From NCBI GenBank assembly GCA_030435675.1, contig CM059621.1:14880001-14944000 (forward strand): a DNA stretch of 64,000 bases, given 5' to 3'. This document shows, one piece after another, positions 11,070-39,040 of the stretch. The notes under the pieces were generated by a model, which saw nothing but the letters and a program-made list of their open reading frames with translations, did not search any database and was not told where the DNA came from. Position numbers and translations under genes: made by a program. Source of the DNA: Steinernema hermaphroditum. Its lineage: Eukaryota; Nematoda; Chromadorea; Rhabditida; Steinernematidae. The first letter of the stretch is position 1, and each line of letters starts with the position of its first letter.

Positions 11070-11075
11070 TTTCAG
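11070..11075 (+). other. probable trans-splice acceptor, gene D
   Basis: tttcag ends two nucleotides before the gene D ATG at 11078. Confidence 0.5.
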
Positions 11076-11077
11076 CA

Positions 11078-14000
11078 ATGGACCGTCACCGACGGCTCCT
11101 ATTCCTCCTGTTCCTTGTCGGGCCAGTGCTAGCGAAGCCCAGCCCGTGTCCACAAGGAACGTTGACCAGCTTCAACCGAGACAAGTGCTACCGCGTGATT
11201 CCGATCGCTGTGCCGTTCGAGCACGCCGAAATCACCTGCCACAACTTCCAATCACGCTTGGCTACGGTATACAACAAATACGATAATCAGATTATCAATG
11301 GTAATACAGTGGTTATTTGATACTGGTTTAAATGTGGATTTAGACGCTGCGTCACTTATTGTCCAGAACATGTTTTTGAAAACAAAAGAGTTTTGGTTAG
11401 GAGGCCGCGACGACAACGATGATGGAAACAGGTGGGAATGGATCGATGTCGAGCAACCCGAGATGAACTACACGAACTGGGCAAGCGGACAGCCGGCTAC
11501 GAAGAACGGATACGACTGCCTTCAAATGCACGCAATTACCGGAAAGTGGAATACCGGAATGTGCTCGAAGCCGTATCCTTACGTTTGTGAATCCGACGTA
11601 GACATTAAACCAACAACATGTCCACGTAAGCAGACAATTTCGAAATTGATCATACTATACCAAATTCAGCTCCACGTAACTCCTCGTGCCCGATATGCAC
11701 GCCATGCTCCACTAGATCTTCCATAAGTACTTGCCCCACACAACCCGAATGCGAACCATGCGTAAAGACGACAACAGCTGGGCCGGAGACCACGACCACC
11801 TCGGAACCTACTACCACCAGCGAAGCTACCGCTCCAACAGCAAAGACCGAGACAACGAGCCAGACAACTCAGACAACAGAAGCCACGTCTACGACTACCG
11901 AGAGCCAGACCACAACGTCTGAAGCCGTGTCTACGACTACCGAGAGCGAGACCACAACGTCTGAAGCAGTGTCGACCACCACCGAGGCCGAGACCACGAC
12001 AGAAGCCCCGTCTACGACTACCGAGAGCGAGACAACAACTTCTGAGGCAGTGAGGACCACCACCGAGGCCGAGACCACGACAGAAGCCCCGTCGACCACC
12101 ACCGAGGCCGAGACCACGACAGAAGCCCCGTCGACCACCACCGAGGCCGAGACCACGACAGAAGCCCCGTCGACCACCACCGAGGCCGAGACCACGACAG
12201 AAGCCCCGTCGACCACCACCGAGGCCGAGACCACGACAGAAGCCCCGTCGACCACCACCGAGGCCGAGACCACGACAGAAGCCCCGTCGACCACCACCGA
12301 GGCCGAGACCACGACAGAAGCCCCGTCGACCACCACCGAGGCCGAGACCACGACAGAAGCCCCGTCGACCACCACCGAGGCCGAGACCACGACAGAAGCC
12401 CCGTCGACCACCACCGAGGCCGAGACCACGACAGAAGCCACGTCTACGACTACCGAGAGCCAGACCACAACGTCTGAAGCCGTGTCTACGACTACCGAGA
12501 GCGAGACCACAACGTCTGAAGCAGTGTCGACCACCACCGAGGCCGAGACCACGACAGAAGCCCCGTCTACGACTACCGAGAGCGAGACAACAACTTCTGA
12601 GGCAGTGAGGACCACCACCGAGGCCGAGACCACGACAGAAGCCCCGTCGACCACCACCGAGGCCGAGACCACGACAGAAGCCCCGTCGACCACCACCGAG
12701 GCCGAGACCACGACAGAAGCCCCGTCGACCACCACCGAGGCCGAGACCACGACAGAAGCCCCGTCGACCACCACCGAGGCCGAGACCACGACAGAAGCCC
12801 CGTCGACCACCACCGAGGCCGAGACCACGACAGAAGCCCCGTCGACCACCACCGAGGCCGAGACCACGACAGAAGCCACGTCTACGACTACCGAGAGCGA
12901 GACCACAACGTCTGAAGCAGTGTCGACCACCACCGAGGCCGAGACCACGACAGAAGCCCCGTCTACGACTACCGAGAGCGAGACAACAACTTCTGAGGCA
13001 GTGAGGACCACCACCGAGGCCGAGACCACGACAGAAGCTGTCGACCACCACCGAGGCCGGCCAAAGCCCACGCGAGAGGAGAAAACCTGGGCAGTGAGGA
13101 CCACCACCGAGGCCGAGACCACGACAGAAGCCCCGTCGACCACCACCGAGGCCGAGACCACGACAGAAGCCCCGTCGACCACCACCGAGGCCGAGACCAC
13201 GACAGAAGCCCCGTCGACCACCACCGAGGCCGAGACCACGACAGAAGCCCCGTCGACCACCACCGAGGCCGAGACCACGACAGAAGCCACGTCTACGACT
13301 ACCGAGAGCCAGACCACAACGTCTGAAGCCGTGTCTACGACTACCGAGAGCGAGACCACAACGTCTGAAGCAGTGTCGACCACCACCGAGGCCGAGACCA
13401 CGACAGAAGCCCCGTCGACCACCACCGAGGCCGAGACCACGACAGAAGCCCCGTCGACCACCACCGAGGCCGAGACCACGACAGAAGCCCCGTCGACCAC
13501 CACCGAGGCCGAGACCACGACAGAAGCCCCGTCGACCACCACCGAGGCCGAGACCACGACAGAAGCCCCGTCGACCACCACCGAGGCCGAGACCACGACA
13601 GAAGCCCCGTCGACCACCACCGAGGCCGAGACCACGACAGAAGCCCCGTCGACCACTACCGAGGCCGAGACCACGACAGAAGCCCCGTCGACCACCACCG
13701 AGGCCGAGACCACGACAGAAGCCCCGTCGACCACCACCGAGGCCGAGACCACGACAGAAGCCCCGTCGACCACCACCGAGGCCGAGACCACGACAGAAGC
13801 CCCGTCGACCACCACCGAGGCCGAGACCACGACAGAAGCCCCGTCGACCACCACCGAGGCCGAGACCACGACAGAAGCCCCGTCGACCACCACCGAGGCC
13901 GAGACCACGACAGAAGCCCCGTCGACCACCACCGAGGCCGAGACCACGACAGAAGCCCCGTCGACCACCACCGAGGCCGAGACCACGACAGAAGCCCCGT

Positions 14001-17000
14001 CGACCACCACCGAGGCCGAGACCACGACAGAAGCCCCGTCGACCACCACCGAGGCCGAGACCACGACAGAAGCCCCGTCGACCACCACCGAGGCCGAGAC
14101 CACGACAGAAGCCCCGTCGACCACCACCGAGGCCGAGACCACGACAGAAGCCCCGTCGACCACCACCGAGGCCGAGACCACGACAGAAGCCCCGTCGACC
14201 ACCACCGAGGCCGAGACCACGACAGAAGCCCCGTCGACCACCACCGAGGCCGAGACCACGACAGAAGCCCCGTCGACCACCACCGAGGCCGAGACCACGA
14301 CAGAAGCCCCGTCGACCACCACCGAGGCCGAGACCACGACAGAAGCCCCGTCGACCACCACCGAGGCCGAGACCACGACAGAAGCCCCGTCGACCACCAC
14401 CGAGGCCGAGACCACGACAGAAGCCCCGTCGACCACCACCGAGGCCGAGACCACGACAGAAGCCCCGTCGACCACCACCGAGGCCGAGACCACGACAGAA
14501 GCCCCGTCGACCACCACCGAGGCCGAGACCACGACAGAAGCCCCGTCGACCACCACCGAGGCCGAGACCACGACAGAAGCCCCGTCGACCACCACCGAGG
14601 CCGAGACCACGACAGAAGCCCCGTCGACCACCACCGAGGCCGAGACCACGACAGAAGCCCCGTCGACCACCACCGAGGCCGAGACCACGACAGAAGCCCC
14701 GTCGACCACCACCGAGGCCGAGACCACGACAGAAGCCCCGTCGACGACTACCGAGGCCGAGACCACGACAGAAGCCCCGTCGACCACCACCGAGGCCGAG
14801 ACCACGACAGAAGCCCCGTCGACCACCACCGAGGCCGAGACCACGACAGAAGCCCCGTCGACCACCACCGAGGCCGAGACCACGACAGAAGCCCCGTCGA
14901 CCACCACCGAGGCCGAGACCACGACAGAAGCCCCGTCGACCACCACCGAGGCCGAGACCACGACAGAAGCCCCGTCGACCACCACCGAGGCCGAGACCAC
15001 GACAGAAGCCCCGTCGACCACCACCGAGGCCGAGACCACGACAGAAGCCCCGTCGACCACCACCGAGGCCGAGACCACGACAGAAGCCCCGTCGACCACC
15101 ACCGAGGCCGAGACCACGACAGAAGCCCCGTCGACCACCACCGAGGCCGAGACCACGACAGAAGCCCCGTCGACCACCACCGAGGCCGAGACCACGACAG
15201 AAGCCCCGTCGACCACCACCGAGGCCGAGACCACGACAGAAGCCCCGTCGACCACCACCGAGGCCGAGACCACGACAGAAGCCCCGTCGACCACCACCGA
15301 GGCCGAGACCACGACAGAAGCCCCGTCTACGACACTACCGAGAGCCGAGACCACAACGTCTGAAGCCCTGTCTACCACTACCGAGGGCGAGACCACAACG
15401 ACTGAAGCCGTGTCGACCACCACCGAGGCCGAGACCACGACAGAAGCCCCGTCTACGACTACCGAGGGCGAGACCACAACTGAGGCCGTGTCGACCACCA
15501 CCGAGGCCGAGACCACGACAGAAGCCCCGTCGACCACCACCGAGGCCGAGACCACGACAGAAGCCCCGTCGACCACCACCGAGGCCGAGACCACGACAGA
15601 AGCCCCGTCGACCACCACCGAGGCCGAGACCACGACAGAAGCCCCGTCGACCACCACCGAGGCCGAGACCACGACAGAAGCCCCGTCGACCACCACCGAG
15701 GCCGAGACCACGACAGAAGCCCCGTCGACCACCACCGAGGCCGAGACCACGACAGAAGCCCCGTCGACCACCACCGAGGCCGAGACCACGACAGAAGCCC
15801 CGTCGACCACCACCGAGGCCGAGACCACGACAGAAGCCCCGTCGACCACCACCGAGGCCGAGACCACGACAGAAGCCCCGTCGACCACCACCGAGGCCGA
15901 GACCACGACAGAAGCCACGTCTACGACTACCGAGAGCCAGACCACAACGTCTGAAGCCGTGTCTACGACTACCGAGAGCGAGACCACAACGTCTGAAGCA
16001 GTGTCGACCACCACCGAGGCCGAGACCACGACAGAAGGGGGGGGGCCCTGTCGACCACCACCGAGGCCGAGACCACGACAGAAGCCCCGTCGACCACCAC
16101 CGAGGCCGAGACCACGACAGAAGCCCCGTCGACCACCACCGAGGCCGAGACCACGACAGAAGCCCCGTCGCCCCGGCCGACCACCACCGAGGCCGAGACC
16201 ACGACAGAAGCCCCGTCGACCACCACCGAGGCCGAGACCACGACAGAAGCCCCGTCGACCACCACCGAGGCCGAGACCACGACAGAAGCCCCGTCGACCG
16301 AGGCGGCCCGCGGCCGCGCCACCACCGAGGCCGAGACCACGACAGAAGCCCCGTCGACCACCACCGAGGCCGAGACCACGACAGAAGCCCCGTCGACCAC
16401 CACCGAGGCCGAGACCACGACAGAAGCCCCGTCGACCACCACCGAGGCCGAGACCACGACAGAAGCCACGTCTACGACTACCGAGAGCCAGACCACAACG
16501 TCTGAAGCCGTGTCTACGACTACCGAGAGCGAGACCACGAAGCGTCGACCCCGAGGAGCAGAGCAGTGTCGACCACCACCGAGGCCGAGACCACGACAGA
16601 AGCCCCGTCTACGACTACCGAGAGCGAGACAACAACTTCTGAGGCAGTGAGGACCACCACCGAGGCCGAGACCACGACAGAAGCCCCGTCGACCACCACC
16701 GAGGCCGAGACCACGACAGAAGCCCCGTCGACCACCACCGAGGCCGAGACCACGACAGAAGCCCCGTCGACCACCACCGAGGCCGAGACCACGACAGAAG
16801 CCCCGTCGACCACCACCGAGGCCGAGACCACGACAGAAGCCCCGTCGACCACCACCGAGGCCGAGACCACGACAGAAGCCCCGTCGACCACCACCGAGGC
16901 CGAGACCACGACAGAAGCCCCGTCGACCACCACCGAGGCCGAGACCACGACAGAAGCCCCGTCTACGACTACCGAGAGCCAGACCACAACGTCTGAAGCC

Positions 17001-20000
17001 GTGTCTACGACTACCGAGGCCGAGACAACAACTTCTGAGGCAGTGTCGACCACCACCGAGGCCGAGACCACGACAGAAGCCCCGTCCACGACTACCGAGG
17101 GCGAGACAACAACTTCGAGGGGCAGTGAGGACCACCACCGAGGCCGAGACCACGACAGAAGCCCCGTCGACCACCACCGAGGCCGAGACCACGACAGAAG
17201 CCCCGTCGACCACCACCGAGGCCGAGACCACGACAGAAGCCCCGTCGACCACCACCGAGGCCGAGACCACGACAGAAGCCCCGTCTACGACTACCGAGAG
17301 CCGAGACCACAACGACTGAAGCCGTGTCTACGACTACGGGGGACGACGACAGCGAGGCCGAGACCACGACTGAAGCCGCGTCGACCACCACCGAGGCCGA
17401 GACCACGACAGAAGCCCCGTCCACGACTACCGAGAGCGAGACCACCACTTCGAGGCCGAGACCACGACAGAAGCCCGTCGACCACCACCGAGGCCGAGAC
17501 CACGACAGAAGCCCCGTCGACCACCACCGAGGCCGAGACCACGACAGAAGCCCCGTCGACCACCACCGAGGCCGAGACCACGACAGAAGCCCCGTCGACC
17601 ACCACCGAGGCCGAGACCACGACAGAAGCCCCGTCGACCACCACCGAGGCCGAGACCACGACAGAAGCCACGTCTACGACTACCGAGAGCCAGACCACAA
17701 CGTCTGAAGCCGTGTCTACGACTACCGAGAGCGAGACCACAACGTCTGAAGCAGTGTCGACCACCACCGAGGCCGAGACCACGACAGAAGCCCCGTCCAC
17801 GACTACCGAGGCCGAGACCACGACAGAAGCCCCGTCCACGACTACCGAGGCCGAGACCACGACAGAAGCCCCGTCGACCACCACCGAGGCCGAGACCACG
17901 ACAGAAGCCCCGTCCACGACAACCGAGGCCGAGACCACGACAGAAGCCCCGTCGACCACCCGACCGAGGCCGAGACAACAACTTCTGAGGCAGTGTCGAC
18001 CACCACCGAGGGGCCAGAGGCCGAGACCACGACAGAAGCCCCGTCGACCACCACCGAGGCCGAGACCACGACAGAAGCCCCGTCGACGACCACCGAGGCC
18101 GAGACCACGACAGAAGCCCCGTCCACGACTACCGAGGCCGAGACCACGACAGAAGCCCCGTCGACGACCACCGAGGCCGAGACAACAACTGAGGCAGTGT
18201 CGACCACCACCGAGGCCGAGACCACGACAGAAGCCCCGTCCACGACAACCGAGGCCGAGACCACGACAGAAGCCCCGTCGACCACCACCGAGGCCGAGAC
18301 CACGACAGAAGCCCCGTCCACGACTACCGAGGCCGAGACAACAACTTCTGAGGCAGTGTCGACCACCACCGAGGCCGAGACCACGACAGAAGCCCCGTCC
18401 ACGACTACCGAGGCCGAGACCACGACAGAAGCCCCGTCGACCACCACCGAGGCCGAGACCACGACAGAAGCCCCGTCCACGACTACCGAGGCCGCGACCA
18501 CGACAGAAGCCCCGTCGACCACCACCGAGGCCGAGACAACAACTTCTGAGGCAGTGTCGACCACCACCGAGAGCGAGACCACGACAGAAGCCCCGTCGAC
18601 CACCACCGAGGCCGAGACCACGACAGAAGCCCCGTCGACCACCACCGAGGCCGAGACCACGACAGAAGCCCCGTCCACGACTACCGAGAGCGAGACCACG
18701 ACAGAAGCCCCGTCCACGACTACCGAGGCCGAGACCACGACAGAAGCCCCGTCCACGACTACCGAGACCGAGACCACAACTTCTGAGGCACTGTCGACCA
18801 CCACCGAGGCCGAGACCACGACAGAAGCCCCGTCGACCACCACCGAGGCCGAGACCACGACAGAAGCCCCGTCGACCACCACCGAGGCCGAGACCACGAC
18901 AGAAGCCCCGTCCACGACTACCGAGGCCGAGACCACGACAGAAGCCCCGTCGACCACCACCGAGGCCGAGACCACGACAGAAGCCCCGTCGACCACTACC
19001 GAGGCCGAGACCACGACAGAAGCCCCGTCGACCACCACCGAGGCCGAGACCACGACAGAAGCCCCGTCGACCACCACCGAGGCCGAGACCACGACAGAAG
19101 CCCCGTCGACCACCACCGAGGCCGAGACCACGACAGAAGCCCCGTCGACCACCACCGAGGCCGAGACCACGACAGAAGCCCCGTCGACCACTACCGAGGC
19201 CGAGACCACGACAGAAGCCCCGTCGACGACTACCGAGGCCGAGACCACAACGACTGAAGCCCCGTCTACGACTACCGAGGGCGAGACCAAACGACTGAAG
19301 CCGTGTCGACCACCACCGAGGCCGAGACCACGACAGAAGCCCCGTCTACGACTACCGAGAGCGAGACAACAACTTCTGAGGCAGTGTCGACCACCACCGA
19401 GGCCGAGACCACGACAGAAGCCCCGTCCACGACAACCGAGGCCGAGACCACGACAGAAGCCCCGTCGACCACCACCGAGGCCGAGACCACGACAGAAGCC
19501 CCGTCCACGACTACCGAGGCCGAGACAACAACTTCTGAGGCAGTGTCGACCACCACCGAGGCCGAGACCACGACAGAAGCCCCGTCCACGACTACCGAGG
19601 CCGAGACCACGACAGAAGCCCCGTCCACGACGACCGAGGCCGAGCGACCACGACAGAAGCCCCGTCGACCACCACCGAGGCCGAGACCACGACAGAAGCC
19701 CCGTCCACGACTACCGAGGCCGAGACCACGACAGAAGCCCCGTCGACCACCACCGAGGCCGAGACCACGACAGAAGCCCCGTCCACGACTACCGAGGCCG
19801 AGACCACGACAGAAGCCCCGTCGACCACCACCGAGGCCGAGACCACGACAGAAGCCCCGTCCACGACTACCGAGGCCGAGACAACAACTTCTGAGGCAGT
19901 GTCGACCACCACCGAGGCCGAGACCACGACAGAAGCCCCGTCCACGACTACCGAGGCCGAGACCACGACAGAAGCCCCGTCCACCACCACCGAGGCCGAG

Positions 20001-23000
20001 ACCACGACAGAAGCCCCGTCCACGACCACCGAGGCCGAGACCACGACAGAAGCCCCGTCCACGACTACCGAGGCCGAGACCACGACAGAAGCCCCGTCCA
20101 CGACTACCGAGGCCGAGACCACGACAGAAGCCCCGTCCACGACTACCGAGGCCGAGACCACGACAGAAGCCCCGTCGACGACCACCGAGGCCGCGACCAC
20201 GACAGAAGCCCCGTCGACCACCACCGAGGCCGAGACCACGACAGAAGCCCCGTCCACGACTACCGAGGCCGAGACCACGACAGAAGCCCCGTCCACGACT
20301 ACCGAGGCCGAGACCACGACAGAAGCCCCGTCCACGACTACCGAGGCCGAGACCACGACAGAAGCCCCGTCGACCACCACCGAGGCCGAGACCACGACAG
20401 AAGCCCCGTCGACGACTACCGAGGCCGAGACAACAACTTCTGAGGCAGTGTCGACCACCACCGAGGCCGAGACCACGACAGAAGCCCCGTCCACGACTAC
20501 CGAGGCCGAGACCACGACAGAAGCCCCGTCCACGACCACCGAGGCCGAGACCACGACAGAAGCCCCGTCCACCACCACCGAGGCCGAGACCACGACAGAA
20601 GCCCCGTCCACGACTACCGAGGCCGAGACAACAACCACTTCTGAGGCAGTGTCGACCACCACCGAGGCCGAGACCACGACAGAAGCCCCGTCCACGACTA
20701 CCGAGGCCGAGACCACGACAGAAGCCCCGTCGACCACCACCGAGGCCGAGACCACGACAGAAGCCCCGTCGACCACCACCGAGGCCGAGACCACGACAGA
20801 AGCCCCGTCCACGACTACCGAGGCCGAGACAACAACTTCTGAGGCAGTGTCGACCACCACCGAGGCCGAGACCACGACAGAAGCCCCGTCCACGACTACC
20901 GAGGCCGAGACCACGACAGAAGCCCCGTCCACGACTACCGAGGCCGAGACCACGACAGAAGCCCCGTCGACCACCACCGAGGCCGAGACCACGACAGAAG
21001 CCCCGTCCACGACAACCGAGGCCGAGACCACGACAGAAGCCCCGTCGACCACCACCGAGGCCGAGACCACGACAGAAGCCCCGTCCACGACTACCGAGGC
21101 CGAGACCACGACAGAAGCCCCGTCCACGACTACCGAGGCCGAGACCACGACAGAAGCCCCGTCCACGACTACCGAGGGCGAGACCACAACAGAAGCCCCG
21201 TCTACGACTACCGAGAGCGAGACCACGACAGAAGCCCCGTCGACCACCACCGAGGCCGAGACCACGACAGAAGCCCCGTCGACCACCACCGAGGCCGAGA
21301 CCACGACAGAAGCCCCGTCCGACCGACCACGCGAGGCCGCGTCCACGACACGAGGCAGCCACGTCCCTCACGACTACCGAGGCCGAGACCACGACAGAAG
21401 CCCCGTCGACCACTACCGAGGCCGAGACCAACAACTTCTGAGGCAGTGTCGACCACCACCGAGGCCGAGACCACGACAGAAGCCCCGTCCACGACTACCG
21501 AGGCCGAGACCACGACAGAAGCCCCGTCCACGACTACCGAGGCCGAGACCACGACAGAAGCCCCGTCCACGACAACCGAGGCCGAGACCACGACAGAAGC
21601 CCCGTCGACCACCACCGAGGCCGAGACCACGACAGAAGCCCCGTCCACGACTACCGAGGCCGAGACAACAACTTTGAGGCAGTGTCGACCACCACCGAGG
21701 CCGAGACCACGACAGAAGCCCCGTCCACGACTACCGAGGCCGAGACCACGACAGAAGCCCCGTCGACCACCACCGAGGCCGAGACCACGACAGAAGCCCC
21801 GTCCACGACTACCGAGGCCGAGACCACGACAGAAGCCCCGTCGACCACCACCGAGGCCGAGACCACGACAGAAGCCCCGTCCACCACCACCGAGGCCGAG
21901 ACCACGACAGAAGCCCCGTCGACCACCACCGAGGCCGAGACCACGACAGAAGCCCCGTCCACGACTACCGAGGCCGAGACCACGACAGAAGCCCCGTCCA
22001 CCACTACCGAGGCCGAGACCACGACAGAAGCCCCGTCCACGACTACCGAGGCCGAGACCACGACAGAAGCCCCGTCGACCACCACCGAGGCCGAGACCAC
22101 GACAGAAGCCCCGTCGACCACCACCGAGGCCGAGACCACGACAGAAGCCCCGTCGACCACCACCGAGGCCGAGACCACGACAGAAGCCCCGTCCACGACT
22201 ACCGAGGCCGAGACCACGACAGAAGCCCCGTCCACGACTACCGAGGCCGAGACCACGACAGAAGCCCCGTCCACGACTACCGAGGCCGAGACCACGACAG
22301 AAGCCCCGTCGACCACCACCGAGGCCGAGACCACGACAGAAGCCCCGTCCACGACTACCGAGGCCGAGACAACAACTTCTGAGGCAGTGTCGACCACCAC
22401 CGAGGCCGAGACCACGACAGAAGCCCCGTCCACGACTACCGAGGCCGAGACCACGACAGAAGCCCCGTCCACGACTACCGAGGCCGAGACCACGACAGAA
22501 GCCCCGTCCACGACTACCGAGGCCGAGACCACGACAGAAGCCCCGTCGACCACCACCGAGGCCGAGACCACGACAGAAGCCCCGTCGACGACTACCGAGG
22601 CCGAGACAACAACTTCTGAGGCAGTGTCGACCACCAGCCGAGACCACGACAGAAGCCCCGTCCACGACTACCGAGGCCGAGACCACGACAGAAGCCCCGT
22701 CCACGACTACCGAGGCCGAGACCACGACAGAAGCCCCGTCCACGACTACCGAGGCCGAGACCACGACAGAAGCCCCGTCCACGACTACCGAGGCCGAGAC
22801 CACGACAGAAGCCCCGTCGACCACCACCGAGGCCGAGACCACGACAGAAGCCCCGTCGACGACCACCGAGGCCGAGACCACGACAGAAGCCCCGTCCACG
22901 ACTACCGAGGCCGAGACCACGACAGAAGCCCCGTCCACGACCACCGAGGCCGAGACCACGACAGAAGCCCCGTCGACCACCACCGAGGCCGAGACCACGA

Positions 23001-26000
23001 CAGAAGCCCCGTCCACGACTACCGAGGCCGAGACAACAACTTCTGAGGCAGTGTCGACCACCACCGAGGCCGAGACCACGACAGAAGCCCCGTCCACGAC
23101 TACCGAGGCCGAGACCACGACAGAAGCCCCGTCCACGACTACCGAGGCCGAGACCACGACAGAAGCCCCGTCCACGACTACCGAGGCCGAGACCACGACA
23201 GAAGCCCCGTCGACCACCACCGAGGCCGAGACCACGACAGAAGCCCCGTCACGACCGTCGACCACCACCGAGGCCGAGACCACGACAGAAGCCCCGTCCA
23301 CGACTACCGAGGCCGAGACCACGACAGAAGCCCCGTCCACGACTACCGAGGCCGAGACCACGACAGAAGCCCCGTCCACGACCACCGAGGCCGAGACCAC
23401 GACAGAAGCCCCGTCCACGACTACCGAGGCCGAGACCACGACAGAAGCCCCGTCCACGACTACCGAGGCCGCGACCACGACAGAAGCCCCGTCGACCACC
23501 ACCGAGGCCGAGACCACGACAGAAGCCCCGTCCACGACTACCGAGGCCGAGACCACGACAGAAGCCCCGTCCACGACCACCGAGGCCGAGACCACGACAG
23601 AAGCCCCGTCCACCACCACCGAGGCCGAGACCACGACAGAAGCCCCGTCGACCACCACCGAGGCCGAGACCACGACAGAAGCCCCGTCCACGACTACCGA
23701 GGCCGAGACAACAATCTGAGGCAGCGTCGACCACCACCGAGGCCGAGACCACGACAGAAGCCCCGTCCACGACAACCGAGGCCGAGACCACGAAGAGCCG
23801 CCCACCGGGCCGAGACCCGACAGAAGCCCCGTCGACCACCACCGAGGCCGAGACCACGACAGAAGCCCCGTCGACCACCACCGAGGCCGAGACCACGACA
23901 GAAGCCCCGTCGACGACTACCGAGGCCGAGACAACAACTTCTGAGGCAGTGTCGACCACCACCGAGAGCGAGACCACGACAGAAGCCCCGTCCACGACTA
24001 CCGAGGCCGAGACCACGACAGAAGCCCCGTCCACGACTACCGAGGCCGAGACCACGACAGAAGCCCCGTCGACCACCACCGAGGCCGAGACCACGACAGA
24101 AGCCCCGTCGACGACTACCGAGGCCGAGACCACGACTGAAGCCGTGTCGACCACCACCGAGAGCGAGACCACGACAGAAGCCCCGTCGACCACCACCGAG
24201 GCCGAGACCACGACAGAAGCCCCGTCGACCACCACCGAGGCCGAGACCACGACAGAAGCCCCGTCGACCACCACCGAGGCCGAGACCACGACAGAAGCCC
24301 CGTCCACGACTACCGAGGCCGAGACAACAACTTCTGAGGCAGTGTCGACCACCACCGAGGCCGAGACCACGACAGAAGCCCCGTCCACGACAACCGAGGC
24401 CGAGACCACGACAGAAGCCCCGTCGACCACCACCGAGGCCGAGACCACGACAGAAGCCCCGTCGACCACCACCGAGGCCGAGACCACGACAGAAGCCCCG
24501 TCGACGACCACCGAGGCCGAGACCACGACAGAAGCCCCGTCGACCACCACCGAGGCCGAGACCACGACAGAAGCCCCGTCCACCACTACCGAGGCCGAGA
24601 CCACGACAGAAGCCCCGTCGACCACCACCGAGGCCGAGACCACGACAGAAGCCCCGTCCACGACTACCGAGGCCGCGACCACGACAGAAGCCCCGTCGAC
24701 CACCACCGAGGCCGAGACAGACGAAGCCCCGTCCACGACTACCGAGGCCGAGACAACAACTTCTGAGGCAGTGTCGACCACCACCGAGGCCGAGACCACG
24801 ACAGAAGCCCCGTCCACGACTACCGAGGCCGCGACCACGACAGAAGCCCCGTCGACCACCACCGAGGCCGAGACAACAACTTCTGAGGCAGTGTCGACCA
24901 CCACCGAGAGCGAGACCACGACAGAAGCCCCGTCGACCACCACCGAGAGCGAGACAACAACTTCTGAGGCAGTGTCGACCACCACCGAGAGCGAGACCAC
25001 GACAGAAGCCCCGTCCACGACTACCGAGGCCGAGACCACGACAGAAGCCCCGTCGACCACCACCGAGGCCGAGACCACGACAGAAGCCCCGTCCACGACA
25101 ACCGAGGCCGAGACCACGACAGAAGCCCCGTCGACCACCACCGAGGCCGAGACCACGACAGAAGCCCCGTCGACCACCACCGAGGCCGAGACCACGACAG
25201 AAGCCCCGTCCACGACTACCGAGGGCGAGACCACGACAAACTTCAGAGGCCCCGTCCACCACCACCGAGGCCGAGACCACGACAGAAGCCCCGTCCACGA
25301 CTACCGAGGCCGAGACCACGACAGAAGCCCCGTCGACCACCACCGAGGCCGAGACAACAACTTCTGAGGCAGTGTCGACCACCACCGAGGCCGAGACCAC
25401 GACAGAAGCCCCGTCGACCACCACCGAGGCCGAGACCACGACAGAAGCCCCGTCCACGACTACCGAGGCCGAGACCACGACAGAAGCCCCGTCCACGACT
25501 ACCGAGGGCGAGACCACAACAGAAGCCCCGTCGACCACCACCGAGGCCGAGACCACGACAGAAGCCCCGTCCACGACTACCGAGGCCGAGACCACGACAG
25601 AAGCCCCGTCGACCACCACCGAGGCCGAGACCACGACAGAAGCCCCGTCCACGACTACCGAGGCCGAGACCACGACAGAAGCCCCGTCCACGACTACCGA
25701 GGCGCGACAACAACTTCTGAGGCAGTGTCGACCACCACCGAGGCCGAGACCACGACAGAAGCCCCGTCCACGACTACCGAGGCCGAGACCACGACAGAAG
25801 CCCCGTCCACGACTACCGAGGCCGAGACCACGACAGAAGCCCCGTCCACGACTACCGAGGCCGAGACCACGACAGAAGCCCCGTCCACGACTACCGAGGC
25901 CGAGACCACGACAGAAGCCCCGTCGACCACCACCGAGGCCGAGACCACGACAGAAGCCCCGTCGACCACCACCGAGGCCGAGACCACGACAGAAGCCCCG

Positions 26001-29000
26001 TCCACGACTACCGAGGCCGAGACAACCCGTCGACCACCACCGAGGCCGAGACCACGACAGAAGCCCCGTCCACGACTACCGAGGCCGAGACCACGACAGA
26101 AGCCCCGTCGACCACCACCGAGGCCGAGACCACGACAGAAGCCCCGTCCACGACTACCGAGGCCGAGACCACGACAGAAGCCCCGTCGACCACCACCGAG
26201 GCCGAGACCACGACAGAAGCCCCGTCCACGACCTACCGAGGCCGAGACAACAACTTCTGAGGCAGTGTCGACCACCACCGAGGCCGAGACCACGACAGAA
26301 GCCCCGTCCACGACTACCGAGGCCGAGACCACGACAGAAGCCCCGTCCACCACCACCGAGGCCGCGACCACGACAGAAGCCCCGTCCACGACTACCGAGG
26401 CCGAGACCACGACAGAAGCCCCGTCCACGACTACCGAGGCCGAGACCACGACAGAAGCCCCGTCGACCACCACCGAGGCCGAGACCACGACAGAAGCCCC
26501 GTCGACGACTACCGAGGCCGAGACCACGACAGAAGCCCCGTCGACCACCACCGAGGCCGAGACCACGACAGAAGCCCCGTCCACGACTACCGAGGCCGAG
26601 ACAACAACTTCTGAGGCAGTGTCGACCACCACCGAGGCCGAGACCACGACAGAAGCCCCGTCCACGACTACCGAGGCCGAGACCACGACAGAAGCCCCGT
26701 CGACCACCACCGAGGCCGAGACCACGACAGAAGCCCCGTCCACGACTACCGAGGCCGAGACCACGACAGAAGCCCCGTCGACCACCACCGAGGCCGAGAC
26801 AACAACTTCTGAGGCAGTGTCGACCACCACCGAGGCCGAGACCACGACAGAAGCCCCGTCCACCACCACCGAGGCCGAGACCACGACAGAAGCCCCGTCG
26901 ACCACCACCGAGGCCGAGACCACGACAGAAGCCCCGTCCACGACTACCGAGGCCGAGACCACGACAGAAGCCCCGTCCACCACCACCGAGGCCGAGACCA
27001 CGACAGAAGCCCCGTCGACCACCACCGAGGCCGAGACCACGACAGAAGCCCCGTCCACGACTACCGAGGCCGAGACCACGACAGAAGCCCCGTCCACCAC
27101 CACCGAGGCCGAGACCACGACAGAAGCCCCGTCGACCACCACCGAGGCCGAGACCACGACAGAAGCCCCGTCGACCACCACCGAGGCCGAGACCACGACA
27201 GAAGCCCCGTCCACCACAACCGAGGCCGAGACCACAACAGAAGCCCTGTCGACCACCACCGAGGCCGAGACCACGACAGAAGCCCCGTCCACCACTACCG
27301 AGGCCGAGACCACGACAGAAGCCCCGTCCACGACTACCGAGGCCGAGACCACGACAGAAGCCCCGTCGACCACCACCGAGGCCGAGACCACGACAGAAGC
27401 CCCGTCGACCACCACCGAGGCCGAGACCACGACAGAAGCCCCGTCCACGACTACCGAGGCCGAGACCACGACAGAAGCCCCGTCGACCACCACCGAGGCC
27501 GAGACCACGACAGAAGCCCTGTCGACCACCACCGAGGCCGAGACCACGACAGAAGCCCCGTCCACGACTACCGAGGCCGAGACCACGACAGAAGCCCCGT
27601 CCACCGACCACCACCGAGGCCGAACGACCCCACGACAGAAGCCCCGTCGACCACCACCGAGGCCGAGACCACGACAGAAGCCCCGTCCACGACAACCGAG
27701 GCCGAGACCACGACAGAAGCCCCGTCGACCACCACCGAGGCCGAGACCACGACAGAAGCCCCGTCGACCACCACCGAGGCCGAGACCACGACAGAAGCCC
27801 CGTCGACCACCACCGAGGCCGAGACCACGACAGAAGCCCCGTCCACGACCACCGAGGCCGAGACCACGACAGAAGCCCCGTCGACCACCACCGAGGCCGA
27901 GACCACGACAGAAGCCCCGTCCACGACCACCGAGGCCGAGACAACAACAGAAGCCCCGTCGACCACCACCGAGGCCGAGACCACGACAGAAGCCCCGTCC
28001 ACCACCACCGAGGCCGAGACCACGACAGAAGCCCCGTCGACCACCACCGAGGCCGAGACCACGACAGAAGCCCCGTCGACCACCACCGAGGCCGAGACCA
28101 CGACAGAAGCCCCGTCGACCACCACCGAGGCCGAGACCACGACAGAAGCCCCGTCGACGACTACCGAGGCCGAGACCACGACAGAAGCCCCGTCGACCAC
28201 CACCGAGGCCGAGACCACGACAGAAGCCCCGTCCACGACAACCGAGGCCGAGACCACGACAGAAGCCCCGTCGACCACCACCGAGGCCGAGACCACGACA
28301 GAAGCCCCGTCGACCACCACCGAGGCCGAGACCACGACAGAAGCCCCGTCCACCACTACCGAGGCCGAGACAACAACTTCTGAGGCAGTGTCGACCACCA
28401 CCGAGGCCGAGACCACGACAGAAGCCCCGTCCACGACTACCGAGGCCGAGACCACGACAGAAGCCCCGTCCACCACCACCGAGGCCGAGACCACGACAGA
28501 AGCCCCGTCCACGACTACCGAGGCCGAGACCACGACAGAAGCCCCGTCGACCACCACCGAGGCCGAGACCACGACAGAAGCCCCGTCCACCACCACCGAG
28601 GCCGAGACCACGACAGAAGCCCCGTCGACCACTACCGAGGCCGAGACCACGACAGAAGCCCCGTCCACGACCACCGAGGCCGAGACCACGACAGAAGCCC
28701 CGTCGACCACCACCGAGGCCGAGACCACGACAGAAGCCCCGTCCACGACTACCGAGGCCGAGACCACGACAGAAGCCCCGTCCACGACCACCGAGGCCGA
28801 GACCACGACAGAAGCCCCGTCGACCACCACCGAGGCCGAGACCACGACAGAAGCCCCGTCCACGCACCACCGAGGCCGAGACCACGACAGAAGCCCCGTC
28901 CACGACTACCGAGGCCGAGACCACGACAGAAGCCCCGTCGACCACCACCGAGGCCGAGACCACGACAGAAGCCCCGTCGACCACCACCGAGGCCGAGACC

Positions 29001-32000: not shown

Positions 32001-35000
32001 GAAGCCCCGTCCACGACTACCGAGGCCGAGACCACGACAGAAGCCCCGTCCACGACTACCGAGGCCGAGACAACAACTTCTGAGGCAGTGTCGACCACCA
32101 CCGAGGCCGAGACCACGACAGAAGCCCCGTCCACGACAACCGAGGCCGAGACCACGACAGAAGCCCCGTCCACGACTACCGAGGCCGAGACCACGACAGA
32201 AGCCCCGTCCACGACTACCGAGGCCGAGACCACGACAGAAGCCCCGTCCACGACTACCGAGGCCGCGACCACGACAGAAGCCCCGTCCACGACTACCGAG
32301 GCCGAGACCACGACAGAAGCCCCGTCGACCACCACCGAGGCCGAGACCACGACAGAAGCCCCGTCCACGACTACCGAGGCCGAGACCACGACAGAAGCCC
32401 CGTCGACCACCACCGAGGCCGAGACCACGACAGAAGCCCCGTCGACCACCACCGAGGCCGAGACCACGACAGAAGCCCCGTCGACCACCACCGAGGCCGA
32501 GACCACGACAGAAGCCCCGTCGACCACCACCGAGGCCGAGACCACGACAGAAGCCCCGTCGACCACCACCGAGGCCGAGACCACGACAGAAGCCCCGTCC
32601 ACGACTACCGAGGCCGAGACCACGACAGAAGCCCCGTCCACGACTACCGAGGCCGAGACCACGACAGAAGCCCCGTCCACGACTACCGAGGCCGCGACCA
32701 CGACAGAAGCCCCGTCCACGACTACCGAGGCCGCGACCACGACAGAAGCCCCGTCCACGACTACCGAGGCCGAGACAACAACTTCTGAGGCAGTGTCGAC
32801 CACCACCGAGGCCGCGACCACGACAGAAGCCCCGTCGACCACCACCGAGGCCGAGACCACGACAGAAGCCCCGTCCACGACTACCGAGGCCGCGACCACG
32901 ACAGAAGCCCCGTCCACGACTACCGAGGCCGAGACAACAACTTCTGAGGCAGTGTCGACCACCACCGAGGCCGAGACCACGACAGAAGCCCCGTCCACGA
33001 CAACCGAGGCCGAGACCACGACAGAAGCCCCGTCCACGACTACCGAGGCCGAGACCACGACAGAAGCCCCGTCCACGACTACCGAGGCCGAGACCACGAC
33101 AGAAGCCCCGTCCACGACTACCGAGGCCGAGACCACGACAGAAGCCCCGTCCACGACTACCGAGGCCGCGACCACGACAGAAGCCCCGTCCACGACTACC
33201 GAGGCCGAGACCACGACAGAAGCCCCGTCCACGACTACCGAGGCCGAGACCACGACAGAAGCCCCGTCCACGACTACCGAGGCCGAGACCACGACAGAAG
33301 CCCCGTCCACGACTACCGAGGCCGAGACCACGACAGAAGCCCCGTCCACGACTACCGAGGCCGAGACCACGACAGAAGCCCCGTCCACGACTACCGAGGC
33401 CGAGACCACGACAGAAGCCCCGTCGACCACCACCGAGGCCGAGACCACGACAGAAGCCCCGTCCACGACTACCGAGGCCGCGACCACGACAGAAGCCCCG
33501 TCCACGACTACCGAGGCCGAGACAACAACTTCTGAGGCAGTGTCGACCACCACCGAGGCCGAGACAACAACTTCTGAGGCAGTGTCGACCACCACCGAGG
33601 CCGAGACCACGACAGAAGCCCCGTCCACGACAACCGAGGCCGAGACCACGACAGAAGCCCCGTCCACGACTACCGAGGCCGAAACCACGACAGAAGCCCC
33701 GTCCACGACTACCGAGGCCGAAACCACGACAGAAGCCCCGTCCACGACTACCGAGGCCGAGACCACGACAGAAGCCCCGTCCACGACTACCGAGGCCGAG
33801 ACCACGACAGAAGCCCCGTCCACGACTACCGAGGCCGAGACCACGACAGAAGCCCCGTCGACCACCACCGAGGCCGAGACCACGACAGAAGCCCCGTCGA
33901 CCACCACCGAGGCCGAGACCACGACAGAAGCCCCGTCCACGACTACCGAGGCCGAGACCACGACAGAAGCCCCGTCGACCACCACCGAGGCCGAGACCAC
34001 GACAGAAGCCCCGTCGACCACCACCGAGGCCGAGACCACGACAGAAGCCCCGTCGACCACCACCGAGGCCGAGACCACGACAGAAGCCCCGTCGACCACC
34101 ACCGAGGCCGAGACCACGACAGAAGCCCCGTCGACCACCACCGAGGCCGAGACCACGACAGAAGCCCCGTCCACGACTACCGAGGCCGAGACCACGACAG
34201 AAGCCCCGTCCACGACTACCGAGGCCGAGACCACGACAGAAGCCCCGTCCACGACTACCGAGGCCGAGACCACGACAGAAGCCCCGTCCACGACCTACCG
34301 AGGCCGAGACACACGACAGAAGCCCCGTCGACCACCACCGAGGCCGAGACCACGACAGAAGCCCCGTCGACCACCACCGACGCCGAGACCACGACAGAAG
34401 CCCCGTCGGCCACCACCGAGGCCGAGACCACGACAGAAGCCCCGTCTACGACTACCGAGGCCGAGACCACGACAGAAGCCCCGTCTACGACTACCGAGGC
34501 CGAGACAACAACTTCTGAGGCAGTGTCGACCACCACCGAGGCCGAGACCACGACAGAAGCCCCGTCCACGACTACCGAGGCCGAGACCACGACAGAAGCC
34601 CCGTCGACCACCACCGAGGCCGAGACCACGACAGAAGCCCCGTCGACCACCACCGAGGCCGAGACCACGACAGAAGCCCCGTCGACCACCACCGAGGCCG
34701 AGACCACGACAGAAGCCCCGTCCACGACAACCGAGGCCGAGACCACGACAGAAGCCCCGTCGACCACCACCGAGGCCGAGACCACGACAGAAGCCCCGTC
34801 CACGACTACCGAGGCCGAGACCACGACAGAAGCCCCGTCCACGACTACCGAGGCCGAGACCACGACAGAAGCCCCGTCCACGACTACCGAGGCCGCGACC
34901 ACGACAGAAGCCCCGTCCACGACTACCGAGGCCGCGACCACGACAGAAGCCCCGTCCACGACTACCGAGGCCGAGACAACAACTTCTGAGGCAGTGTCGA

Positions 35001-37905
35001 CCACCACCGAGGCCGCGACCACGACAGAAGCCCCGTCGACCACCACCGAGGCCGAGACCACGACAGAAGCCCCGTCCACGACTACCGAGGCCGCGACCAC
35101 GACAGAAGCCCCGTCCACGACTACCGAGGCCGAGACAACAACTTCTGAGGCAGTGTCGACCACCACCGAGGCCGAGACCACGACAGAAGCCCCGTCCACG
35201 ACAACCGAGGCCGAGACCACGACAGAAGCCCCGTCCACGACTACCGAGGCCGAGACCACGACAGAAGCCCCGTCCACGACTACCGAGGCCGAGACCACGA
35301 CAGAAGCCCCGTCCACGACTACCGAGGCCGAGACCACGACAGAAGCCCCGTCCACGACTACCGAGGCCGCGACCACGACAGAAGCCCCGTCCACGACTAC
35401 CGAGGCCGAGACCACGACAGAAGCCCCGTCCACGACTACCGAGGCCGAGACCACGACAGAAGCCCCGTCCACGACTACCGAGGCCGAGACCACGACAGAA
35501 GCCCCGTCCACGACTACCGAGGCCGAGACCACGACAGAAGCCCCGTCCACGACTACCGAGGCCGAGACCACGACAGAAGCCCCGTCCACGACTACCGAGG
35601 CCGAGACCACGACAGAAGCCCCGTCGACCACCACCGAGGCCGAGACCACGACAGAAGCCCCGTCCACGACTACCGAGGCCGCGACCACGACAGAAGCCCC
35701 GTCCACGACTACCGAGGCCGAGACAACAACTTCTGAGGCAGTGTCGACCACCACCGAGGCCGAGACAACAACTTCTGAGGCAGTGTCGACCACCACCGAG
35801 GCCGAGACCACGACAGAAGCCCCGTCCACGACAACCGAGGCCGAGACCACGACAGAAGCCCCGTCCACGACTACCGAGGCCGAAACCACGACAGAAGCCC
35901 CGTCCACGACTACCGAGGCCGAAACCACGACAGAAGCCCCGTCCACGACTACCGAGGCCGAGACCACGACAGAAGCCCCGTCCACGACTACCGAGGCCGA
36001 GACCACGACAGAAGCCCCGTCCACGACTACCGAGGCCGAGACCACGACAGAAGCCCCGTCGACCACCACCGAGGCCGAGACCACGACAGAAGCCCCGTCG
36101 ACCACCACCGAGGCCGAGACCACGACAGAAGCCCCGTCGACCACCACCGAGGCCGAGACCACGACAGAAGCCCCGTCCACGACTACCGAGGCCGAGACCA
36201 CGACAGAAGCCCCGTCGACCACCACCGAGGCCGAGACCACGACAGAAGCCCCGTCGACCACCACCGAGGCCGAGACCACGACAGAAGCCCCGTCGACCAC
36301 CACCGAGGCCGAGACCACGACAGAAGCCCCGTCGACCACCACCGAGGCCGAGACCACGACAGAAGCCCCGTCGACCACCACCGAGGCCGAGACCACGACA
36401 GAAGCCCCGTCCACGACTACCGAGGCCGAGACCACGACAGAAGCCCCGTCCACGACTACCGAGGCCGAGACCACGACAGAAGCCCCGTCCACGACTACCG
36501 AGGCCGAGACCACGACAGAAGCCCCGTCCACGACTACCGAGGCCGAGACCACGACAGAAGCCCCGTCGACCACCACCGAGGCCGAGACCACGACAGAAGC
36601 CCCGTCGACCACCACCGACGCCGAGACCACGACAGAAGCCCCGTCGGCCACCACCGAGGCCGAGACCACGACAGAAGCCCCGTCTACGACTACCGAGGCC
36701 GAGACCACGACAGAAGCCCCGTCTACGACTACCGAGGCCGAGACAACAACTTCTGAGGCAGTGTCGACCACCACCGAGGCCGAGACCACGACAGAAGCCC
36801 CGTCCACGACTACCGAGGCCGAGACCACGACAGAAGCCCCGTCGACCACCACCGAGGCCGAGACCACGACAGAAGCCCCGTCGACCACCACCGAGGCCGA
36901 GACCACGACAGAAGCCCCGTCGACCACCACCGAGGCCGAGACCACGACAGAAGCCCCGTCCACGACAACCGAGGCCGAGACCACGACAGAAGCCCCGTCG
37001 ACCACCACCGAGGCCGAGACCACGACAGAAGCCCCGTCGACCACCACCGAGGCCGAGACCACGACAGAAGCCCCGTCGACCACCACCGAGGCCGAGACCA
37101 CGACAGAAGCCCCGTCCACGACAACCGAGGCCGAGACCACGACAGAAGCCCCGTCGACCACCACCGAGGCCGAGACCACGACAGAAGCCCCGTCGACCAC
37201 CACCGAGGCCGAGACCACGACAGAAGCCCCGTCCACGACTACCGAGAGCGAGACAACAACTTCTGAGGCAGTGTCGACCACCACCGAGGGCGAGACAACT
37301 ACAGAAATTATCTCCACAACGGCATCCACTCCGAATAACTCTACACCTGCTATTCCAACAACGTCGATTCGTCCGAGTACTCCTGCTCCAGAAGGATGGG
37401 CGCGTTGGGAAGACCACTACTATCATTACAACAGCACCCCAATGGCGTTCTTGGCTGCTGAGCGATACTGTTCTCAACAAAAGAGCCATTTAGTGTCTAT
37501 TCATAGTGGTGCTGAACAAGATTTCCTCACGAAGCTCGTCCACCCATCAGGTCCTGTTCCAATTGCCGGAATTCGAGTTTGGACCGGTGGATTTGCGCAG
37601 ATCTTCAACTTCAATTTCATGTGGACCGATGGAAGTTCTTTTGATTATGAAGATTGGTTCACTGGCTATCCTCAGGACGACGGCAACGCCATAACCGTCT
37701 GCATAAGAGTAAGTGCTTAAATAGTTTCGTTATAACTATTTCCGTAATTCAGATGACTATCATGGAAAGTGAGACCAAATGGATCACCATGGATTGTGGC
37801 TTCTACGGCCCAGTCCTGTGCAAAAAGCCGATCTACTCTGGCTTGTCTTCGTCCTTCTTCGAGCGCATGAAGAAGATGTCAGTTAACCCGTTCGCGGACG
37901 CTTAA
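11078..37905 (+). CDS. gene D, giant mucin-like double-CTLD protein
   Basis: Exons 11078-11300, 11344-11625, 11670-37708 and 37753-37905 join with the phases used by genes B and C. The protein begins with a signal peptide (residues 1-19), then CTLD1 (about 22-160; FWLGGRDD, WEWIDV, ASGQPATKNGYDC, YPYVCES) and a short Cys-rich stretch (SSCPICTPC). A vast Thr/Ser/Glu/Ala/Pro tract follows. CTLD2 (37390-37905; HLVSIHS, VWTGG, FMWTDGSSFDYEDW, PVLCKK) ends the protein. The third exon is 26,039 nt, exactly in frame overall, so a frame-corrected product would have about 8,898 residues, with roughly three Glu and seven Thr/Ser per 13-residue repeat. As written, the frame breaks near 16038 and a stop follows at 16640-16642, giving about 1,825 residues without CTLD2. 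Function is inferred: a secreted, heavily O-glycosylated, acidic filament with a lectin-like fold at each end. Sugar-binding residues are not canonical. Confidence 0.8.
13378..15327 (+). repeat. homogenised block of about 50 units
   Basis: Fifty consecutive 39-nt units run without a TTTSEAV spacer or frame break and are almost all the TCGACCACCACC type; I see only isolated single-base differences (near 13653 and 14744). This is the most uniform stretch of the array. Confidence 0.8.
32560..34797 (+). repeat. 2.2-kb tandem duplication inside the array, copy 1
   Basis: The order of unit variants, GCG-bearing units, doubled TTTSEAV units (33531, 33570) and the rare units with GACGCC and TCGGCC (34379-34412) is repeated immediately downstream at an offset of 2201 bp, becoming 2238 bp after one extra unit in copy 2 and two extra bases in copy 1. 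Confidence 0.85.
34798..37035 (+). repeat. 2.2-kb tandem duplication inside the array, copy 2
   Basis: Matches copy 1 unit by unit (doubled TTTSEAV at 35732 and 35771, rare GACGCC unit at 36617). It lacks the irregular frame-breaking unit present in copy 1 at 34291-34316, so that lesion arose after the duplication or is a sequencing error. Confidence 0.85.
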
Positions 37906-37943: not shown

Positions 37944-37949
37944 AATAAA
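37944..37949 (+). terminator. poly(A) signal of gene D
   Basis: AATAAA lies 39 nt after the stop codon of gene D. Confidence 0.75.
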
Positions 37950-38730
37950 TAACTGAGCATTTAAATTCTTGTATTACTTCTGCGGAAACTGCAATGATTG
38001 TAATCAGGTCTGTGCAAGTTTTGAGTTCTGCGATTTTGAATGATAGTTTGGGCTTTAAATTTGAGTGCTTTGACAAAATTGGACTTAGAACTCTGCCTTC
38101 AAGCAATGTCGATGCCGGAGAGTTCTCTATCCTCCAGCGGATGGCAAAGAAATATTCATCAGCTCCAGCAACGTCAAAAGTGAGAGGCTCTTCTTCAGGG
38201 CTTCAATGACACTGACCAATCTCTGAAGATCGATGCAACCCGAATACTTTTACTGTATTTCTGCACTTCACTTTAAGTTTTGAGTTTTTGTTTTGAGTCC
38301 ATCAACAAAGTTTTGAGTCTCGCACGGCCCCGCACAGATGGTGATGATGCTTTCGGTTGGGGTTTCGAGTCTCTGCGAACTCCCGGGTATTTGGGGAGGT
38401 AGTCCGATCTAGCTGTGAAATCTAGGCACGTTTTGGGTGAAAGGAGCGAAACGGCGCGGCCACGTCCTTCAGAAGCTTTCGCGCATGGCTTCGAGGCCTT
38501 CAAGTGGGAAACACTGACGAAAAACAACTTGCTCTTGTCTCTTGTCTGAAGGTCATGCTGAATAATATCGTGTTTCACAAAAGGGGAGTACTCCCGAGAA
38601 TAGCTCTCTTTAGGGTGTCGTGTCCGAGACACGGCATGATCTCGTATTATCCCCTCCAATACTGTGTGGTCCCCTTTGTACACCGTGCTCTCATATCAAG
38701 CGTTTTCGTTGTGGTTGTGGTGCAACTTCT

Positions 38731-39040
38731 TCGTAGATGGATGGCAACTAGCCAACTGTCGCCGTTCGTATTCCCGAGCCTCAGCAGGCCAGAAAAACCC
38801 ATATCTTACGACGTCGCTCGAAGGGAACTCATACGAGTCAGCTCGTCGCTCGGATTACGGAAGAACCTGACGTTGCATGGATTTCGTTGTGGTTCAGCAA
38901 CAGCAGCCATTGCCAACGGCGCGCCCATAGATGAAATAATGAGATTTGGCAGATGGAAGCGTCTAGGAACCCTAGATGTTTACGTGGAGGTGTCAACCGC
39001 AACGGTGCCGACGGCGTCTTCTGTGATCAACCATCTGTGA
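38731..39040 (+). pseudogene. tyrosine recombinase fragment (DIRS/PAT-like element)
   Basis: The frame ending at 39040 encodes the C-terminal part of a tyrosine recombinase. LHGFRCGSATAAIANG gives the H-x-x-R catalytic motif, FGRW supplies the conserved Trp, and DVYV supplies the likely Tyr nucleophile; the spacing matches recombinases of DIRS, Ngaro and PAT retroelements or Cryptons. The N-terminal catalytic Arg region is not visible upstream, and no reverse transcriptase lies nearby. It is best read as a truncated mobile-element relic. The start given is approximate; the frame stays open upstream, but that part does not look like a recombinase. Confidence 0.7.

What the first reader, a model, noticed from the sequence alone, without database searches (positions are those of the whole stretch)
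11078..37905. One lectin-like gene with a 26-kb repeat exon, about 8,900 residues if frame-corrected
Unique exons on both sides (signal peptide plus CTLD1, and CTLD2) have the same intron phases as the neighbouring double-CTLD genes, so the whole 26.8 kb reads as one gene. The linker, 20-150 residues in most relatives, becomes about 8,500 residues of acidic Thr-rich repeat. A secreted filament with a lectin-like fold at each end and thousands of possible O-glycosylation sites would be an unusual mucin.
Basis: partly seen in the sequence, partly recalled or inferred. Interest (0 to 1): 0.88.

Follow-up and report, generated by a model that had tools for sequence, protein, structure and literature searches.

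The report
Giant mucin-like gene with lectin-like ends
In the genome of an insect-killing roundworm, a small secreted lectin-like gene seems to have swollen its linker into a 25-kilobase threonine-rich repeat, so that it probably makes a giant mucin-like protein, although its exact length is uncertain because the repeat is poorly assembled.

Summary
Window 11078-37905 reads as one four-exon nematode gene: SL-type acceptor, leader and CTLD1 (exons 1-2), a 26,039-nt exon with ~25.4 kb of 39/42-bp repeats (TTTEAETTTEAPS), CTLD2, poly(A) signal. The genome is Steinernema hermaphroditum. The closest paralogue, P0003 (352 aa, ~16 kb upstream), has the same three introns, and each end of the giant gene matches its counterpart there best within the cluster. 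Repeat variation sits mostly at third codon positions of the expected frame (heterozygosity 0.34/0.38/2.38), so the array looks translated. No in-frame ATG precedes CTLD2. But the assembled frame is broken: 23 frame changes, 20 between 16.0 and 28.85 kb; read literally the gene stops after 1,825 residues. I favour consensus errors in an array hard to sequence, so 'about 8,900 residues' is an estimate. Other CTLD genes here carry shorter clean repeats (78 and 29 TTTTEEP): an extreme variant of a known kind. Canonical sugar-binding motifs are missing from both CTLDs, so 'lectin-like' is right. Transcript, product and function are unproven.

The parts
11070..11075 (+). TTTCAG, likely spliced-leader (trans-splice) acceptor 2 nt before the ATG
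   Evidence: only TTTCAG in 10900-38000; a TTTCAG also lies 2 nt before the ATG of P0003's gene and 4 nt before that of the downstream neighbour
11078..11300 (+). exon 1: hydrophobic leader and first half of CTLD1; ends in phase 1
   Evidence: homologues P0001, P0002, P0003
11301..11343 (+). intron 1, 43 nt, GT-AG, phase 1
   Evidence: same place and phase in P0003's gene
11344..11625 (+). exon 2: second half of CTLD1; ends in phase 1
   Evidence: Pfam Lectin_C 3e-17 for spliced CTLD1
11626..11669 (+). intron 2, 44 nt, phase 1
   Evidence: same place and phase in P0003's gene
11670..37708 (+). exon 3, 26,039 nt: Cys-rich linker, repeat array, Thr/Ser/Pro linker, most of CTLD2; ends in phase 0
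11670..11763 (+). Cys-rich linker start (CPICTPC...CEPC), a feature shared with paralogues
   Evidence: Cys/Pro-rich linkers in P0003 and the downstream gene
11858..37302 (+). tandem array of 39-bp (TTTEAETTTEAPS) and 42-bp (TTTEAETTTSEAVS-type) units, 633 unit starts
16007..28901 (+). middle of the array with 20 of the 23 frame changes and locally garbled units
32562..36100 (+). internal segmental duplication: 34-unit run starting at 32562 repeated from 34763 (end approximate)
37391..37708 (+). CTLD2, exon-3 part, in one native open frame with the last ~3.4 kb of the exon
   Evidence: Lectin_C at residues 1288-1369 of ORF 33578-37717
37709..37752 (+). intron 3, 44 nt, phase 0
   Evidence: same place and phase in P0003's gene and in the downstream gene
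37753..37905 (+). exon 4: end of CTLD2, short tail, stop
   Evidence: Pfam Lectin_C 3.9e-13 for spliced CTLD2
37944..37949 (+). AATAAA poly(A) signal, the only one in 11078-38000

Best explanation
It is one functional gene of Steinernema hermaphroditum for a secreted, giant mucin-like protein with a C-type-lectin-like domain at each end. It arose by duplication of a short double-CTLD gene (like P0003, 66-residue linker) followed by runaway tandem expansion of a 13/14-residue Thr/Glu unit inside the linker exon, with slippage and segmental duplication. SHOWN on sequence: gene anatomy, common origin of the two ends, coding signature of the array. INFERRED: most frame breaks are consensus errors of the assembly, the mRNA is made whole (~27 kb), and the product is thousands of residues long. 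MECHANISM (inferred): the array is O-glycosylated into a stiff, hydrated, strongly acidic rod; the Cys-rich linker and CTLDs anchor or cross-link it into an extracellular coat or gel such as a surface coat, gut or receptacle lining, or reproductive plug. I give about 0.85 to one gene with a translated array, 0.65 to one product of several thousand residues carrying both CTLDs, and 0.4 to the coat/gel function.
For: Pfam Lectin_C at both ends. In the cluster stretches compared (window plus L020-L024), CTLD1's best other match is P0003 CTLD1 (152 bits, next 100) and CTLD2's is P0003 CTLD2 (70.5 bits, next 64.3); identity to the protein 46.6% and 37.0%; 3 of 3 introns shared in place and phase. 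Homologues of the left end in S. glaseri (72.9%) and S. carpocapsae (71.3%). Single TTTCAG before the ATG, single AATAAA after the stop; of five ATGs in 11670-37440 none is in frame, and none at all lies between 11758 and 37396. Left 4.3 kb and right 3.4 kb of exon 3 are in frame with CTLD1 and CTLD2 as assembled. Codon-position heterozygosity 0.34/0.38/2.38; synonymous alternative alleles 13 of 23 against 0.28 expected, p 0.004; the other two + strand registers 7 of 23 and 4 of 23, no excess. The 39/42-bp types differ by one whole codon. In the local frame, 6 stops in 8,668 codons, all six inside irregular intervals at breaks. A control array (TTTTEEP, CTLD gene on C3) varies only at third positions, 0/0/2.94 over 76 units cut at a fixed step, and keeps its frame.
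Against: The assembled frame is broken 23 times and gives only 1,825 aa; no RNA, peptide or read data could be seen; homologue searches for the CTLD2 end found nothing, though their length limits would miss most relatives; CTLD2's best match leads the next by only 6 bits. Few independent changes underlie the codon test (23 alleles, only the 592 regular units), the test by variable sites alone is weak (10 of 19, p 0.065), and a one-step test on rare units showed no signal.
Confidence: 0.65

Rival explanations
1. The frame breaks are real. The gene is a decayed or null allele that makes at most CTLD1 plus about 1,650 residues of linker and repeat and stops near 16.64 kb; CTLD2 is a fossil.
For: Literal translation stops after 1,825 residues, and the literally spliced CDS holds 38 stops counting the terminal one.
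Against: 20 of 23 breaks cluster in the middle of the array (binomial p 3e-4, limits chosen after seeing the data), many in garbled units such as one with a run of nine G; CTLD2, its intron and poly(A) signal are intact; 5.4-kb and 3.4-kb stretches to the right keep one frame net; no stops in regular units.
Confidence: 0.15
2. The array is real but its assembled length is not: it is collapsed, expanded or polymorphic, so the protein is large but not about 8,900 residues. (Compatible with the best explanation; odds are not exclusive.)
For: A repeated 34-unit block and a nearly pure left part, a garbled middle; tandem arrays of this size are hard to assemble (general knowledge).
Against: Ordered unit variants differ between left and right parts, so it is not simply one block copied many times.
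Confidence: 0.4
3. The array is a retained intron or exitron: splicing from a weak donor at 11727 (GTACTT, phase 1) to 37305 or 37392 (phase 1) gives an ordinary short-linker double-CTLD protein.
For: A phase-compatible donor and acceptors exist (phases worked out by hand from its coordinates).
Against: The donor is poor against those used by this gene (GTAATA, GTAAGC, GTAAGT); exon 3 has no TTTCAG or TTTTAG and one TTCAG, at 25242 inside the array; it would be a ~25.6-kb intron against 43-44 nt in this gene; it does not explain the third-position pattern.
Confidence: 0.06
4. Two separate genes, left and right, brought together by chance or misassembly.
For: No spanning read or cDNA could be inspected.
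Against: Both ends match the two halves of one paralogue with shared introns; the right part has no TTTCAG, no in-frame ATG before CTLD2 and so no leader; the left has no AATAAA (an ATTAAA lies in exon 2 at 11604).
Confidence: 0.04

Closest known systems
S. hermaphroditum QR680_018619 (P0003), neighbouring double-CTLD protein, 352 aa
   Same: leader, CTLD1, Cys-rich plus Thr-rich linker, CTLD2, same three introns
   Different: linker 66 residues instead of about 8,500
Other CTLD genes of this genome with TTTTEEP repeats (C3 ~12.273 Mb, 78 units; C1 ~3.158 Mb, 29 units)
   Same: CTLD beside a Thr/Glu-rich tandem repeat in one exon or open frame
   Different: other unit, open frame, about 552 and 232 residues; other places in the genome; their gene models were not completed here
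Toxocara canis TES-120 mucins MUC-1 to -5 (passages of PMC3611597)
   Same: secreted nematode mucins, Ser/Thr core flanked by folded Cys-rich domains; part of a shed surface coat
   Different: 176-316 aa; ShKT ends, not CTLD
C. elegans PLG-1 and other nematode mucins (passages of PMC11304992, and PMC3219595)
   Same: mucin-like nematode proteins; PLG-1 is required for the copulatory plug
   Different: no CTLD ends mentioned in the passages read; size of PLG-1 not seen in any call
C. elegans CLEC-41/CLEC-42 (passages of PMC8051790)
   Same: two CTL domains in one nematode protein
   Different: carry two CUB domains; no mucin array mentioned in the passages read

Membership tests
Secreted double-CTLD proteins of Steinernema | two CTLDs, each like its positional counterpart in the family | tested here: met
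   for CTLD2 the lead over the next match is small (70.5 against 64.3 bits)
Secreted double-CTLD proteins of Steinernema | shared intron places and phases (1, 1, 0) | tested here: met
   3 of 3 with P0003; the downstream gene has two introns, phases 1 and 0, and lacks the middle one
Secreted double-CTLD proteins of Steinernema | N-terminal signal peptide | tested here: inconclusive
   hydrophobic leader MDRHRRLLFLLFLVGPVLA seen by eye; no predictor was run
Ca2+-dependent C-type lectins | sugar-binding motifs EPN or QPD, and WND (recalled, from no call) | tested here: not met
   none of these strings occurs in CTLD1 or CTLD2 as translated (read by eye); CTLD1 has QPA and WNT
Secreted mucins | tandem repeats rich in Thr/Ser over much of the chain | tested here: met
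   4,590 of 8,668 exon-3 codons are T or S in the local frame
Secreted mucins | dense O-glycosylation | not testable with these tools
   needs glycoproteomics
Secreted mucins | one uninterrupted reading frame through the repeat | tested here: not met
   23 frame changes as assembled; I ascribe them to assembly, unproven
Gel-forming mucins | terminal Cys-rich (von Willebrand D / cystine knot type, recalled) multimerisation domains | tested here: not met
   only Lectin_C found in the pieces scanned; a Cys-rich linker is present but is not such a domain

The most novel reading that the evidence does not exclude
A single translated chain of some 8,000-9,000 residues, a micrometre-scale acidic glycosylated rod with a different CTLD at each end, that forms a Steinernema-specific extracellular matrix (surface coat, or the receptacle matrix in which the Xenorhabdus symbiont is carried), its length evolving fast by repeat slippage.
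Probability: 0.3. Interest if true: 0.75.

Novelty: new variant of a known kind. Interest (0 to 1): 0.55.

Why it matters
If the product is made whole, this would be by far the largest CTLD protein of those seen here and a natural experiment in how a modest lectin-like gene becomes a mucin: a paralogue without the expansion lies 16 kb away with the same exons, and homologues of the left end exist in S. carpocapsae and S. glaseri. It bears on the makeup of nematode surface coats, whose specific mucins are said to be unknown in C. elegans (PMC11304992, passage). It may also show that gene catalogues lose such genes: the two left-end homologues found in sister species are only 187 and 250 aa long.

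Tried and rejected
Search for relatives of the CTLD2 end gave nothing (22 candidates, lengths allowed roughly 760-2,400 aa; 21 candidates, roughly 100-320 aa); these limits exclude P0003 itself (352 aa), so the miss is not evidence of absence. No further length window could be tried (3 of 3 protein searches used).

Overlapping long ORFs on both strands and all frames of the array were rejected as a by-product of a repeat with few stops: of the + strand registers only the TTTEAE one shows excess synonymous change. Minus-strand registers were not given this test.

A one-step mutation test on rare units was uninformative (39-bp units: 6 synonymous of 19 changes, expected 0.30; 42-bp units: 2 of 6, expected 0.29): no sign of selection in that test. 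The later test over all alternative alleles did show it; both are reported.

Literature: the listings (titles, starts of abstracts) showed no paper on this gene or on a giant CTLD mucin; the library lacks most subscription papers, and the genome paper (Schwarz et al. 2025, PMC12606440, seen only as a reference) is not held. The Meloidogyne mucin-like gene Mi-muc-1 (PMC6638177, passages; 374 residues, 26.2% Ser/Thr) and the S. carpocapsae genome paper (PMC5120318, passages) gave nothing closer. No structure was predicted; Pfam was judged enough for the CTLDs.

Full report
What is there. The window lies on contig C1 (18,227,500 bases) of a 90.6-Mb assembly. Protein P0003, named as Steinernema hermaphroditum QR680_018619 on a contig of exactly 18,227,500 bases, is encoded on C1 at 14,873,079-14,874,788, about 5 kb upstream of the window (pieces of 97, 96 and 86% identity in a search that ignores introns; the exons read give its sequence), so the genome is S. 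hermaphroditum. The region is a cluster of double-CTLD genes. The gene at 11078-37905 has four exons, three introns of 43, 44 and 44 nt, phases 1, 1, 0, and a summed CDS of 26,697 nt, a multiple of three. A TTTCAG lies 2 nt before the ATG, as in P0003's gene, and one lies 4 nt before the ATG of the downstream neighbour; an AATAAA follows the stop. In 10900-38000 this TTTCAG, and in 11078-38000 this AATAAA, are the only ones (that TTTCAG marks SL trans-splicing is general knowledge of nematodes).

The array. 633 unit starts were found; 532 units are exactly 39 bp, 60 exactly 42 bp, 41 irregular. The common peptide is TTTEAETTTEAPS; the 42-bp type adds one codon (TTTEAETTTSEAVS). All 554 matches in the genome to a 27-nt core (up to 3 mismatches) lie here, all on one strand, and all 146 places listed for a 66-residue repeat peptide lie here (150 of 194 candidates scored). 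A 34-unit run recurs 54 units on. Exon 3 read in the local frame holds 8,668 codons, 3,841 Thr, 749 Ser, 1,873 Glu; K+R is 0.9%.

One gene? Yes, on four lines. (1) Paralogy: in the stretches compared (window plus L020-L024), CTLD1's best other match is P0003 CTLD1 (152 bits, next 100) and CTLD2's best other match is P0003 CTLD2 (70.5 bits, next 64.3, a small lead), with identities 46.6% and 37.0% against the protein; three of three introns agree in place and phase. (2) Signals: the right part has no TTTCAG and no in-frame ATG before CTLD2 (0 of 5 ATGs in 11670-37440). (3) Continuity: the last 3.4 kb of exon 3 is one native frame with CTLD2, Lectin_C at residues 1288-1369 of ORF 33578-37717, and the first 4.3 kb (with one self-cancelling disturbance near 13.0 kb) is in frame with CTLD1. 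(4) Homologues of the left end in S. glaseri (P0001, 250 aa) and S. carpocapsae (P0002, 187 aa); P0001 runs on into a Cys-rich and then Thr/Ser-rich linker and ends there, P0002 ends at the start of the linker. Their right ends were not found.

Is the array translated? Over 592 regular units, heterozygosity summed by codon position is 0.34, 0.38 and 2.38; 13 of 23 alternative alleles are synonymous against 0.28 expected (p 0.004), and the other two + registers show no excess (7 of 23, 4 of 23). By variable sites alone it is 10 of 19 at third positions (p 0.065), and a one-step test on rare units showed no signal, so the evidence is good but rests on few independent changes. A control array in another CTLD gene (C3) varies only at third positions, 0/0/2.94, both in 78 units picked by the peptide TTTTEEP and in 76 units cut at a fixed 21-base step; one unit near its end lacks a codon but the frame holds.

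The weak point is the frame. Between consecutive unit starts the frame changes 23 times; two cancel near 13.0 kb, one lies near 34.3 kb, and 20 lie between 16.0 and 28.85 kb (p 3e-4 with limits chosen afterwards). Many sit in garbled units. All six stops found in local frames lie in those irregular intervals. Read literally the gene stops after 1,825 residues, before CTLD2. The pattern (clean ends, dirty middle, intact CTLD2 and splice sites) fits consensus error in an array that reads did not span better than decay, but I could see no reads and no account of how the assembly was made.

Comparison. The kind is known: nematode CTLD proteins with Thr-rich linkers (this cluster), and nematode mucins with folded ends such as Toxocara TES-120 (PMC3611597, passages). 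Within this genome other CTLD genes carry shorter repeats: about 552 residues (C3) and about 232 (C1), and within the cluster linkers of 66, 113, 147 and about 170 residues were measured. What is new is the scale, about fifteen times the next longest found here; I did not survey all CTLD genes (six further CTLD loci were read, chosen mostly for long open frames; the family search scored 150 of 257 candidates). A survey reports that Steinernema species have many CTLD genes and that only a small part of nematode CTLDs keeps the residues for sugar binding (PMC5297725, passages); neither CTLD here has EPN, QPD or WND (by eye; motifs recalled).

Function. An acidic, densely O-glycosylated rod with anchoring ends would suit a coat or gel. 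Candidate places are the surface coat, which is thought to hold mucins of unknown identity in C. elegans (PMC11304992, passages), the receptacle of infective juveniles, where the symbiont of S. carpocapsae can attach to an intravesicular structure (PMC5750387, passages), or a copulatory plug like that needing PLG-1 (PMC3219595, passage). Nothing here chooses between them.

Noticed in passing
38717-38995 (ORF 38441-39040, +): Tyrosine recombinase fragment (Pfam PF00589, 1.6e-8) just downstream of the gene; 64 matches in the genome including itself, many in longer open frames and several on small contigs C9, C24, C27: a multicopy, probably mobile element.
   Followed up: partly
8376-8924: Two arrays of AAAAGAGAGCCAAATT-type repeats facing each other as a long inverted repeat (74-nt arms, 95%), perhaps a MITE-like element.
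   Followed up: partly
L025:968-3238 (C3 ~12.273 Mb) and L027 (C1 ~3.158 Mb): CTLD genes with in-frame TTTTEEP arrays, 78 and 29 units: probably independent mucin-like expansions in the same gene family.
   Followed up: partly
63417-63511 and 6203-6315: Short 42-bp and 24-bp tandem repeats in the Thr-rich linkers of two other CTLD genes of the cluster, possible early stages of the same process.
   Followed up: no
32562-36100: A 34-unit block repeated 54 units further on inside the array, either a recent segmental duplication or an assembly effect.
   Followed up: no
12050, 12605, 13001, 13094, 16647, 17125: GTGAGG motifs, donor-like, only in the left part of exon 3; not tested for use.
   Followed up: no
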